Origin: Erinaceus europaeus
Lineage: Eukaryota > Chordata > Mammalia > Eulipotyphla > Erinaceidae
Assembly (NCBI RefSeq): GCF_950295315.1
Contig: NW_026647346.1
Coordinates: 62,001-126,000, forward strand
Length of the DNA: 64,000 nucleotides
Reading direction: 5' to 3'
Part shown: positions 11,423 to 62,713 of the stretch, piece after piece
How the letters are laid out: each line of letters opens with the position of its first letter
How positions within the stretch are numbered: position 1 is the stretch's first letter
Notes under the pieces: model-generated
Told to the model about the DNA's origin: nothing
Seen by the model: only the letters and a program-made list of their open reading frames with translations
Database searches by the model: none
Position numbers and translations under genes: made by a program

Positions 11423-11487
11423 ATGTCTGAGTCTACCAGAAAGTCTTCGCGGCTTTCAGGGTGTCTGGGCTGTCTGTCCTGCTTCAG
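11423..11487 (+). CDS. Gene A exon 1 (start codon)
   Basis: The exon runs from ATG at 11423 to the donor CAG|gtagag. It encodes 21 full codons beginning MSESTRKSSRL and ending in a Cys-rich stretch, CLGCLSCF. The clustered cysteines could be palmitoylated, but that is inference. A purine at -3 favours this ATG. The exon ends after two bases of a codon, as exon 2 requires. The same exon is present in gene B at 48564-48628. Confidence 0.7.
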
Positions 11488-60600: not shown

Positions 60601-62713
60601 CAGGTGAGTGTCAGGGTAATCTGAGAAGAGGCTGATTGGAGTGAGACATTAACTGCAAAGACTCAAAGTAAATTGTTTCCGGCTTCGCTTCAATACCTTC
60701 TGACAGGGAAAGCACAGGCAACAGGCCTCCGTGCATTCAATAGACAGTAACCAACTCACTGCTCTGTAACAGGCTCCAGTGACAGTCCTTGCTTCTCTAC
60801 TTCTTTCTCTGTGGCAGATTTGCTCTGTAGCGCTCTTCTTCATGAGGAATTCATGGCATTCCAGGCACAGTAATGTATAAGAGCATCTTCCTCTTTATTT
60901 TGTCAACTCTTTTCTTGGGCACATGCGAGGGCAGGGTCTCCTGTCAGGTTCAGAGACACAGAGACACAGAGACACGGCCTTCTTTGCACAGAAGGTCCAG
61001 GAGAAGGCCCGTGTGTCACACTTACAGTGAGGTGAGTCTCTTCATGGTCAGCCTGGACCTAGACTGAGGTTTCTCTCCATCTAGATGGCAAACATCTGCA
61101 GGAGCATGAAGTGGGCCAAATGCCAGCCACTGAGGAGCTTCCACAGGAAGCACAGGAGTCCCCCAGCCTCGCATGTGAAGACCAGCAGGGGAAAGGGGAC
61201 CCCCTGGGTGCCTGTGTATGCCTTGAGCCAGGTCAGATCTTCCTTCCTGAAACAAGCTCATGAAACTGAAAACCAATCCCATGGGAGGGAGGGCAGGATT
61301 AGCAGGGACCTAGAAGCCCCCAGAAACCATACGCGTCTCCACTGACTCTGGTAGAGGTGGAGCTGCAGTGTAGCTCAGAGTTGAAGGGATGGACTGGACT
61401 CTATTCTGAGCTTGTATTGGAGAAGCCTTGGTGTTCCTGTTACAGTGAAACTCTCAATTCCACCCCCAGAGCAGACTCATTTCCCAAGTCGTCTTCAGGC
61501 CCAGATGAGCAAGAAACTATACTGAAAGTCTATGTGTTATCAGGTGTCTTTAAAATGGTCGTTCTAGCCAGTCCCTCCCCCTTCCCCAATATAATGCTAA
61601 AACTCTCCCACCAATCTTTGTGCCTTGTAAGAAAAGGCCTAGCTGGCATTTTTTTTGGATCAGAATAGAATGGATTAAAATATTTTTAATATGATAATGC
61701 GAATCCAGAAGAACTGACTTACACTTTCAAGGTTGTATTCATACTCCATCAACCCTGAGGTATTCATAAAACAAATCTTGCCTAAACTCTGAAGACAGAT
61801 CATTTTAATAAGCTAGCCTGTTTAGTCATCCCACTCAGCCCCCATGGATAGAGCATCTCTCTTGTTTGGTCACTGAGGGAACATGAACTCTTCCTCTAAA
61901 TAATGCCCAGCACAGAAGGACCAGGCCTGACAGGGTGACACAGGACTCTGTTTCTCTGCTGCTGCCTGTGCTCAGCCTCAGAGGACTCTCTGGGTGTAGA
62001 GTGAGTGTAAGGAGATATGGCATTCTTCCTCAAGGCATTCTCTCTGCTGAGACTCCATATTGAATTTATCTGGATTCCAGTTACAAATATTAAGTTCAGT
62101 AAAACATAAGGTCACATACCTCAATTCCCCATTAAACATTTTCCTGCTAATATGCCGGGATCATGTCTCCTAGACTTAAGACTGGGTTTGCTCTCCCCTT
62201 CTGTCCCTCTACAATGGTTTCAAGTGGACCCTTGGCCCCTTGGTTCTCCAAGCCCTTCATCCTCTCACTGCCTCTGCTCTGCTCCCTGAGGCTCCTCCTT
62301 TGTCCATTGCTAAACCCACTGCTATGTTCATAGGTCTCTGTGCTGGGGGTGACTCTACCTGGACCCTGGGCAGCTCTATTGACAGAGACAAGAACAAGAG
62401 TCTGTCAGTGGCTGTGGAGCAGAGGAGTGAGGACAACACTGCCTTCCGTGACATGGAAAGCACCAGGCAGTGCTCCATGTTCATTCATTGGCACAGGGCT
62501 CTGGCACGGCCACCTTTATTGACCCAGACTGCCCTGGAGCCTAACACTGAGTTTCTGATGGGCTCTGGGGACAGGGCCACCCACAACGCGCCAGTCACCA
62601 ACACTGCTCTGGCCCTTTACAGGCCCCGTTATCCCATCAATAGTGTCATATATTGGTATATAGTCATTTGTTGTATTTTTCTGTTTATTGATATAATAAA
62701 ATTTATCCTATAA
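48564..62713 (+). CDS. Gene B: paralogue of gene A, PH-domain protein without RhoGAP (8 coding exons)
   Basis: The exons are 48564-48628, 49820-49978, 51709-51828, 52395-52436, 53072-53135, 60561-60603, 61085-61207 and 62334-62713. They sum to 996 nt and give an open 331-codon frame plus stop. The PH half is retained: RGHIQFTGLGKF, WQKRQLILYSNVLLISNTK, IKYTLTLRDMSV, SLVLGWRDRIFVV and MEQWYNEL. Two splice sites differ from gene A. The exon 3 acceptor AG is lost, but an AG downstream keeps the frame; the exon 4 donor is GC. The exon matching gene A exon 8 is missing. The C-terminus is new and hydrophobic, so the protein might be tail-anchored. Intron 5 holds a nearly full-length L1. The gene may be functional or may be starting to decay; the intact frame favours function. 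Confidence 0.6.
49088..49114. repeat. (ATT)n microsatellite
   Basis: About eight ATT units. Confidence 0.85.
49820..49978 (+). CDS. Gene B exon 2 (first half of the PH domain)
   Basis: Between gtgttgcag and AA|gtgcgt, 159 nt encode SAVEESGLEEKNIPEVPRG and the first PH strands. The exon has the same length and phase as gene A exon 2, but about a third of its residues differ. Confidence 0.7.
50470..50605 (-). mobile_element. SINE2 in gene B intron 2
   Basis: ggattgaacctaggactttg and a target repeat caaattcttt-like on both sides. Gene A's intron is uninterrupted here. Confidence 0.6.
50910..51186 (+). mobile_element. SINE1 in gene B intron 2, shared
   Basis: Same insertion as 14446-14720. Confidence 0.65.
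51709..51828 (+). CDS. Gene B exon 3 (second half of the PH domain, shifted acceptor)
   Basis: At the position of the gene A acceptor the sequence is cctctcctgg, with no AG, and 4 nt are missing just after it. An AG inside gagtgcag (51707-51708) gives an exon whose first base completes the exon 2 codon, so the frame continues as IKYTLTLRDMSVTFNKR then KARTSLVLGWRDRIFVV. The donor is CA|gtaaga. The acceptor is inferred from frame only. Confidence 0.55.
51985..52082 (-). mobile_element. SINE1 fragment in gene B intron 3, shared
   Basis: Reverse box B gcttgaacctgggtcctt; the same insertion as in gene A. Confidence 0.55.
52395..52436 (+). CDS. Gene B exon 4 (PH C-terminal helix, GC donor)
   Basis: Encodes SVTKMEQWYNELH after ggatttcag. 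Where gene A has AG|gtatgc, gene B has AG|gcatcc. A GT donor lies 17 nt downstream (52454-52455, TTCAG|gtatta), but using it would put the next exon out of frame. The GC donor is therefore the frame-compatible choice, though a poor match to consensus. Confidence 0.5.
52465..52612 (-). mobile_element. SINE2 in gene B intron 4, shared
   Basis: gattgaactaggatctcatg, at the same place in the intron as in gene A. Confidence 0.65.
53072..53135 (+). CDS. Gene B exon 5
   Basis: A 64-nt exon between ttgattag and CACT|gtaagt, encoding SNIQNEILGIQNTSRKQVED and IT. It aligns with gene A exon 5 at its first two residues, but most of the rest is replaced. Confidence 0.6.
53530..53740 (-). mobile_element. 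L1-like 3' repeat fragment in gene B intron 5
   Basis: tgcaaaacactctcaccccc and catcatgcaccaggacctga match other reverse 3' ends. It abuts the full-length L1. Confidence 0.45.
54050..57834 (-). pseudogene. L1 ORF2 (endonuclease and reverse transcriptase), broken
   Basis: The endonuclease start MISINVNGLNSPIKRHRV and CLQEAH are at 57,834-57,700. An SDHSGIKLTL segment lies near 57,180, KKTSPGPDGFTNEFYKTF near 56,470, and the catalytic FADD at 55751-55762. The C-terminal Cys region is near 54,450. Many frameshifts and stops leave no long frame. Confidence 0.85.
57973..58888 (-). pseudogene. L1 ORF1 (RNA-binding chaperone), broken
   Basis: It starts MVKTTRRNTGESNQDR and has a long coiled coil rich in Glu and Lys (residues about 60-143). 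The frame breaks near 58,457. The C-terminal domain resumes at about 58,220 with ERILKAAREIQRVTYKGKPI. Confidence 0.8.
59740..59935 (-). mobile_element. SINE1 next to the full-length L1
   Basis: gcttgaaccaggatccttct and cgcttaacctgttgcaccat. Confidence 0.65.
59945..60082 (-). mobile_element. SINE1 fragment
   Basis: gttcagccctgggttcttgc and ctaaccagctgcaccacctc. Confidence 0.6.
60561..60603 (+). CDS. Gene B exon 6
   Basis: A 43-nt exon between ctcttccag and CAG|gtgagt, encoding DANSSLEETTEPPA. It is 24 nt shorter than the gene A exon and stays in frame. Confidence 0.6.
61085..61207 (+). CDS. Gene B exon 7
   Basis: A 123-nt exon between tctccatctag and CTGG|gtgcct, encoding DGKHLQEHEVGQMPATEELP and an acidic remainder. 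It differs from gene A exon 7 at nine of 42 residues. Confidence 0.65.
61345..62090. other. Gene B intron 7 segment unrelated to gene A
   Basis: It replaces the gene A DNA that holds exon 8. A 103-codon plus frame (61357-61668) is open but unrecognised, and no compatible splice pair was evident. Confidence 0.4.
62334..62713 (+). CDS. Gene B exon 8 (last coding exon with new hydrophobic end)
   Basis: After ctatgttcatag the frame runs 380 nt to a stop at 62711-62713. The first 90 or so residues match gene A exon 9, starting GLCAGGDSTWTLGSS. Around 62,620-62,640 the two copies stop being alignable. Gene B then ends in YWYIVICCIFLFIDIIKFIL, which could be a single membrane segment. AATAAA at 62695-62700 lies inside the last codons. 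Confidence 0.55.
62695..62700 (+). promoter_or_regulatory. Gene B candidate polyadenylation signal
   Basis: AATAAA lies 11 bases before the stop codon in DNA not shared with gene A. If used, the 3' UTR would be very short. Confidence 0.3.

What the first reader, a model, noticed from the sequence alone, without database searches (positions are those of the whole stretch)
11423..62713. Tandem PH-domain paralogues whose exons diverge faster than their introns
Hand alignment of exon 2 (12643-12801 with 49820-49978) gives about 27 differences in 159 bases (17 percent), of which about 21 change the protein. The first 235 or so bases of the next intron differ at about 9 percent. Exon 1 has five differences, all amino-acid changing. 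Exon 3 is worse still, and the last exon is altered mostly in its middle. Coding DNA that evolves faster than neighbouring intron points to diversifying selection, as in host-defence or reproductive proteins. Relaxed constraint alone would bring exons only to the intron level.
Basis: partly seen in the sequence, partly recalled or inferred. Interest (0 to 1): 0.82.

Follow-up and report, generated by a model that had tools for sequence, protein, structure and literature searches.

The report
Hedgehog's hugely amplified PH-domain genes
Two neighbouring hedgehog genes whose coding parts differ more than their introns turn out to belong to a family with hundreds of copies in this genome, and the excess looks like one change of pace between two gene types rather than ongoing diversification of the whole family.

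Summary
In detail: between gene A (11423-21663) and gene B (48564-62713) exons differ at 169/891 aligned bases, non-exon DNA at 683/5495. The window is European hedgehog. A and B are subtypes of an amplified family with an ARHGAP20-type PH domain and no RhoGAP match: an exon-7 31-mer has 306 places, an A-type exon-3 31-mer 151. One intron-less copy joining exons 5-9 shows germline splicing. Within A-type and within B-type copies exons and introns diverge about equally; the clear excess is between types. Synonymous sites share part of it. A branch model gives omega 0.8 in general and 1.7 on the B branch (2.7 for E1-E7), p 0.04-0.004, post hoc and uncorrected; weaker with another B copy. Patchy intron conversion was not seen. 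Frames were protected (no frame-breaking indel between A and copy C2b, about 15.5 expected), though the window's B has lost splice sites that three other copies keep. Diversifying selection is only partly supported.

The parts
11423..11487 (+). gene A exon 1 (start codon)
   Evidence: GT donor; similar N-terminus in related copies
12643..12801 (+). gene A exon 2 (start of PH domain)
   Evidence: AG/GT borders
15240..15386 (+). gene A exon 3 (PH domain)
15853..15894 (+). gene A exon 4 (end of PH domain)
16578..16644 (+). gene A exon 5 (linker)
   Evidence: exon 5-6 junction seen in retrocopy L040
19680..19746 (+). gene A exon 6
   Evidence: exon 6-7 junction in L040
20227..20355 (+). gene A exon 7; A lacks the 21 bases that hold the downstream donor used in the retrocopy
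20566..20703 (+). gene A exon 8 (present in the Q and R copies read; not found in the window's B)
   Evidence: exon 7-8 and 8-9 junctions in L040
21221..21663 (+). gene A exon 9 (C-terminal part, stop TGA)
48564..48628 (+). gene B exon 1
49820..49978 (+). gene B exon 2
51697..51828 (+). gene B exon 3 region: canonical acceptor lost and four bases missing relative to three other B-type copies; 51709-51828 is open with a shifted acceptor
52395..52436 (+). gene B exon 4, followed by GC instead of GT (three other B-type copies have GT)
53072..53135 (+). gene B exon 5 (middle hardly alignable with A)
60561..60603 (+). gene B exon 6
61085..61231 (+). gene B exon 7 (with the downstream donor, as P0001's protein suggests)
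62334..62713 (+). gene B last exon (equivalent of exon 9; its 3' end is unlike A's and resembles P0001's)

Best explanation
A and B are two subtypes of a strongly amplified hedgehog gene family that carries an ARHGAP20-type PH domain without a detectable RhoGAP domain. The family spreads by repeated duplication of larger units, one of which holds an A and a B gene about 36.5 kb apart (shown). A-like transcripts are, or were, made and spliced in the germline (shown by one retrocopy). Reading frames were protected while amino acids changed almost freely (omega about 0.8; shown for the copies read). The A-B exon excess arose mainly on the branch to the B type, as one bout of faster protein change, probably part positive selection (suggested) and part a generally higher rate of exon sites, synonymous ones included (suggested). 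The window's B copy has since lost splice sites and is probably decaying. How it most likely works (inferred): the PH domain, whose basic first-loop stretch is invariant in the four proteins aligned, binds membrane lipid, and the protein acts as a GAP-less competitor or adaptor of Rho/Rap signalling in germ cells.
For: PF22286 RHG20_PH in A 5e-19, B 4e-9, P0001, P0002 and C2b; no RhoGAP or RA match at E<=1. The only relatives found in the protein database are predicted hedgehog proteins (2 of 3248 candidates, then 3 of 7653). 306 places of the exon-7 31-mer and 151 of the A-type exon-3 31-mer, reversed controls 0; B exon-3 probe: 40 scored of 426 candidates, all 95-100% identical; 19 of the 40 listed A places have one of the 40 listed B places 31.9-43.9 kb downstream on the same strand. 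Spliced exon 6-7 junction: one place, control 0; its locus holds the end of exon 5 and exons 6-9 without introns. Frame: only in-frame indels between A and C2b where about 15.5 frame-breaking ones are expected. Type contrasts. Branch estimates. Invariant K50-F-Q-K53, R55, W57-Q-K-R60 across A, B, P0001, P0002.
Against: The branch-B omega is marginal, post hoc, and not significantly above 1 with copy B8 or without exon 5. Without exon 5 the B-type against C2b exon/intron ratio (1.12-1.27) is near A-C2b's 1.11. In exon 9 dN and dS on the B branch are both high (.308.249), which selection alone does not predict. Two-class rate and selection models fit the A-B pair equally. 4 of 4 Q-clade copies share a stop in exon 9, C39 and B39 are frame-shifted, so many copies may be pseudogenes. 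No expression, protein or lipid-binding evidence exists here; the lipid-binding and competitor steps are inference.
Confidence: 0.5

Rival explanations
1. No adaptive change: near-neutral coding exons with a higher mutation or fixation rate than introns (base composition, CpG, clustered mutations), plus a few locally replaced segments (exon 5, middle and end of the last exon).
For: A two-class rate model with omega=1 fits A-B as well as a two-class selection model (lnL -3392.03 v -3392.64, five parameters each); codon positions equal; dS of A-R (.227) and A-B (.221) exceeds uncorrected intron divergence (.151.125); exon 9 on the B branch raised in dN and dS alike; without exon 5 B-type against C2b is little raised.
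Against: Codons with unchanged amino acid show synonymous change near the intron expectation (23 seen, 18.1 expected, z 1.2); four-fold sites with identical first two bases 12/85; the clear excess is confined to contrasts with the B type, which a general exon rate does not predict; CpG removal leaves it.
Confidence: 0.3
2. Family-wide diversifying selection, keeps exons changing faster than introns in all copies.
For: Exons exceed introns between A and B; A-C2b and C91-C2b exons E1-E5 are also a little above introns (ratio 1.28, p 0.02).
Against: Within B-type exon and intron are alike; whole-gene A-Q .083 v .086, A-R .158 v .154, Q-R .167 v .154, omega 0.73-0.94 over the five pairs A-C91, A-C31, A-C2a, A-C2b, C91-C2b, none different from 1; background omega 0.80.
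Confidence: 0.12
3. Gene conversion between A and B has homogenised the introns, so that exons keep the true, older divergence.
For: By introns A and B are closer (.125) than either is to C2b (.151.155), while exons E1-E5 are about equally far (.194-.221).
Against: A-B divergence by intron follows the A-C2b profile times 0.81 without a significant misfit (chi2 11.7, 9 df, p=0.23; largest single deviations z 2.3 in intron 1 and -1.9 in intron 6); divergence changes sharply at exon borders in several exons, which conversion would not respect.
Confidence: 0.08

Closest known systems
ARHGAP20 (Pfam PF22286 RHG20_PH)
   Same: PH domain matched over most or all of the 93-position model in A (2-92, 5.2e-19), C2b (8-92, 6.7e-19) and P0001 (2-93, 2.7e-17); what reads like the genome's own ARHGAP20 PH exons lies on C98 (L006; named from recalled human sequence)
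   Different: No RhoGAP or RA match; short proteins (413-418 aa in A and C2b) with their own N- and C-terminus; hundreds of copies
Mammalian trappin multigenes (PMC2831891; passages seen)
   Same: Recently duplicated paralogues whose coding regions diverge more than introns; the authors also report accelerated synonymous sites in armadillo and pig by unknown mechanisms, as seen here
   Different: Described as host-defence peptides; few copies; not PH proteins
Snake venom gene families (PMC6062510; passages and part of the reference list seen)
   Same: Accelerated protein change after duplication (KA/KS>1)
   Different: Venom proteins, acceleration across the venom copies of several families; here only one branch stands out
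Ampliconic testis gene families (PMC6772104, PMC6028258; start of abstracts in search listing only)
   Same: Many nearly identical copies; germline transcription
   Different: Those described are mostly on sex chromosomes and testis-expressed; chromosome identity and tissue were not determined here

Membership tests
ARHGAP20-type PH domain family (PF22286) | PH domain scoring above the curated cut-off of 27.7 bits | tested here: met
   A 68.7, B 37, P0001 63.2, P0002 61.3, C2b 68.3 bits
ARHGAP20 proper | RhoGAP catalytic domain | tested here: not met
   No RhoGAP model among Pfam matches at E<=1 in A, B, P0001, P0002, C2b
ARHGAP20 proper | Ras-associating domain after the PH domain | tested here: not met
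   No RA model match; against a recalled ARHGAP20 segment the last exon is weak (shuffles reaching it: A 13, C2b 3, C91 13, P0001 217, B 501 of 1000) and 4 retrocopy pieces show nothing (80-472 of 500)
Gene families under diversifying selection | dN/dS above 1 against a neutral yardstick | tested here: inconclusive
   Only the B branch: 1.70 (p 0.040 v 1), E1-E7 2.67 (p 0.015), without exon 5 2.15 (p 0.076); background 0.8; not significant against 1 with copy B8
Ampliconic germline gene families | Many near-identical copies in large duplicated blocks | tested here: met
Ampliconic germline gene families | Germline transcription | tested here: met
   One processed copy with exons 5-9 joined; older intron-less relatives L004, L005, L007, L008. 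Tissue and present activity not shown
Ampliconic germline gene families | Sex-chromosome location or testis-specific expression | not tested
   No expression data; chromosome C2 not identified
Actin / actin-related proteins (for the last exon) | Profile similarity to actins that holds across the family | tested here: inconclusive
   For: A, C2b and C91 beat 1000 of 1000 shuffles against recalled beta-actin, B is reached by 9 and P0001 by 38; best PDB hits are actins at E 0.89 and 0.3. Against: the seven-sequence profile finds no actin at E<=10, 3 of 4 retrocopy pieces show nothing, no Pfam match

The most novel reading that the evidence does not exclude
A hedgehog-lineage germline arms race: hundreds of GAP-less ARHGAP20-derived PH proteins compete at membranes with Rho/Rap regulators in developing sperm or eggs, amplified as drivers and suppressors of transmission. 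This resembles the role of Rho regulators in mouse t-haplotype drive, which is recalled, not looked up. The A/B exon jump would be the birth of a functionally opposed subtype.
Probability: 0.1. Interest if true: 0.85.

Novelty: new member of a known kind. Interest (0 to 1): 0.55.

Why it matters
It turns a two-gene curiosity into a large gene amplification in a mammal, with protected frames but nearly free amino-acid change in the copies read. It is also a worked case of a trap: exons that out-diverge introns need not mean selection alone, because synonymous sites can share the excess, as reported for trappins. The many copies with graded divergence make both selection and exon rate directly testable. 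Five literature searches bearing on the family (only the 3-12 rows listed of 3 to 1,430 papers were seen) and one on the phenomenon showed no description of it in those listings; subscription journals and preprints were not covered.

Tried and rejected
Actin-derived last exon (a PH-actin fusion): attractive at first, not established, because the wider profile lost every actin and the retrocopies hardly show it; shuffles of A, C2b and C91 still favour it, so it is open. RA domain of ARHGAP20 as origin: weak and absent in retrocopies. So the last exon has no established relative outside the family. Intron conversion. CpG effect as sole cause.

Dropped rows: B-containing lines (frame lost at B's exon 3, 186-188 codons only), replaced (forced global alignment with unalignable stretches), replaced; copy C39 left out of codon work after its frame shift; copy C2a has only exons 3-9 in the stretches fetched. 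One search's M7 fit for all codons ran off to a meaningless value and was ignored. A protein search for relatives of the last exon found none among 99 candidates. NCBIfam found none for P0001 and P0002. The phage DNA search was irrelevant; ARAGORN found no tRNA.

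Full report
What was claimed and whether it is there. Over all aligned columns exons differ at 169/891 and non-exon DNA at 683/5495; removing CpG or all CpG/TpG/CpA sites leaves the gap; 31 of 6346 circular shifts of the exon map reach it. The excess sits mainly in exons 3 and 9 (p=0.0012 and 1e-5 against flanking introns), with exon 5 nearly unalignable; exons 1, 6 and 7 are not raised above the overall non-exon level.

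What the genes are. Spliced A (9 exons, 418 aa) and B (8 exons) are open. Both carry the ARHGAP20-type PH domain PF22286 (A 5.2e-19, B 4e-9) and no RhoGAP or RA match. The only relatives found in a 5.8-billion protein database, by a search that needs shared 5-residue words and similar length, are three predicted hedgehog proteins (P0001, P0002 and an XPD-like chimera P0003), all on a contig of 204,397,818 bases. The window's own assembly has a contig C2 of just that length, so the species is Erinaceus europaeus; the window lies on contig C259 (142,618 bases).

A family of hundreds. An exon-7 31-mer shared by A and B up to two mismatches has 306 places in the genome, 0 for the reversed control; the 100 places listed all lie on C2 at 165.2-175.8 Mb. 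An A-type exon-3 31-mer has 151 places; of the 100 listed, in at least three sequence variants, 84 lie on C2 at 164.7-176.4 Mb and the rest elsewhere on C2 or on other contigs (tally by hand). DNA probes of A and B exon 3 each scored 40 of 427 and 426 candidates, all 95-100% identical, so these are lower bounds. Of the 40 listed A places, the window's included, 19 have one of the 40 listed B places 31.9-43.9 kb downstream on the same strand, 10 of the 19 at 36.4-36.5 kb as in the window: A and B travel together in a duplicated unit. A further set of related genes, with a similar N-terminus and PH exons but other introns, accounts for 16 of the first 20 places fetched from the 143 PF22286 matches; 4 of the 20 were A-like.

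Are they genes? A and copy C2b share an intact frame with only in-frame indels, where about 15.5 frame-breaking ones would be expected at the intron rate; a neutral branch of 0.085 would bring 3.65 premature stops on average. A search for the spliced exon 6-7 junction gave exactly one place, on contig C3, control 0; the locus holds the end of exon 5 and exons 6, 7, 8 and 9 fused without introns, 92% identical to A over 840 bases. A-like transcripts were therefore spliced in cells of the germ line. Older intron-less relatives exist too (L004, L005, L007, L008). Decay is also common: of six copies read over all nine exons (A, C31, C91, C39, C2b, C2c) three are fully open, two (C31, C91) have one stop in exon 9 and lack A's final stop, and one (C39) is frame-shifted; all four Q-clade copies share the exon-9 stop. 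The window's B lacks the canonical exon-3 acceptor and four bases that copies B39, B8 and B191 keep, and its exon-4 donor is GC where theirs is GT; B39 has a frame shift of its own.

Where the excess lies. With further copies the A-B contrast can be placed. Q (C31, C91, C39, C2a; about 11% from A) and R (C2b, C2c; about 18%) are A-like. Whole-gene exon and intron divergence are nearly equal for A-Q (A-C91 .083.086), A-R (.158.154) and Q-R (.167.154), with omega 0.73-0.94 over five pairs, not different from 1. Over exons 1-5, six of six pairs within B-type show no significant excess (ratio 0.74-1.32), A-C91 shows none (1.18, p 0.25), A-C2b and C91-C2b a slight one (1.28, p 0.02), and twelve of twelve B-type against A-type pairs a clear one (1.33-2.30, p at most 0.007). 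Against this reading: over exons 1-4 alone the B-type against C2b ratios are 1.12-1.27, near the 1.11-1.12 of A and C91 against C2b. On balance the excess is a difference between types, not an ongoing property of the family.

Selection or rate? On the A-B pair alone synonymous sites share the excess: dN .244, dS .262, positions 1/2/3 at .202/.215/.215. In a joint model with introns, raising the exon rate with omega 1 fits better than raising omega alone (lnL -12218.4 v -12222.1); with two classes of codon they tie. Yet codons with unchanged amino acid carry only 23 synonymous changes against 18.1 expected. On the four-lineage tree the B branch has dN .211 against .09 on A and R while dS is alike (.12.10.13); the branch model gives omega 1.70 on B and 0.80 elsewhere (p=0.015 against one ratio, 0.040 against 1), 2.67 for exons 1-7 (p=0.0036 and 0.015), 2.15 for those without exon 5 (p=0.031 and 0.076), and 1.24 n.s. 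for exon 9. These p-values are not corrected for choosing the branch on which the excess had been seen. With copy B8 (exons 2-5) in place of B, omega is 2.2 (p=0.017 against one ratio, 0.085 against 1), and without exon 5 1.55 (p=0.16 and 0.37). Exon 9 on the B branch is raised in dN and dS alike and ends in sequence unlike A's but like P0001's, which looks like local replacement. Intron conversion is not supported: the A-B profile along the introns follows A-C2b times 0.81 (chi2 11.7, 9 df, p=0.23).

How it may work. The basic stretch K-F-Q-K-x-R-x-W-Q-K-R in the first part of the PH domain is invariant in A, B, P0001 and P0002, while much of the linker and the C-terminus varies. From general knowledge of PH domains (recalled), that loop is where phosphoinositides bind. 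The inference is a membrane-directed, GAP-less competitor or adaptor in the germ line; no step of this was tested.

Known or new. Faster coding than intron divergence after duplication is known, most closely in mammalian trappins, where the authors also found accelerated synonymous sites in armadillo and pig by unknown mechanisms (PMC2831891, passages); accelerated protein change after duplication is known in venom genes (PMC6062510, passages). Large amplified germline families are known, mostly on sex chromosomes (listing). The listings of five searches showed nothing on this hedgehog family. It is a new member of a known kind, notable for its size and for the protected frames with nearly free amino acids.

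Noticed in passing
window 62950-64000, + strand: Long open frame with reverse-transcriptase-like motifs (a YADD box, recalled as typical) of a non-LTR retrotransposon that does not read like L1; a second open stretch follows to the window's end. Family not tested.
   Followed up: partly
window about 53770-59700: A long insertion in intron 5 of gene B without counterpart in A that looks like an antisense L1 element (by eye, not tested).
   Followed up: no
L009, L010, L012-L015, L017, L018, L021-L028; C2:164.9-176.6 Mb and many unplaced contigs: A second set of related amplified genes with a similar N-terminal start and PH exons but different introns; by frame length and match range roughly a hundred of the 143 rows, of which 16 were fetched.
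   Followed up: partly
P0003 (hedgehog, XPD-like): A predicted protein joining an XPD-like start to exon 6-7 sequence of this family; either a mis-predicted model or an XPD-like fragment near a copy.
   Followed up: no
window 45996-46740: Three tandem copies of a 248-base unit (96% and 77% identical to the first) between genes A and B.
   Followed up: no
window about 11100-11140 and 48126-48172: A CA-repeat upstream of both genes at matching positions, of different length (by eye).
   Followed up: no
window 20566-20850: The flank after exon 8 resembles the flank after exon 7, as if one exon arose from the other (by eye).
   Followed up: no
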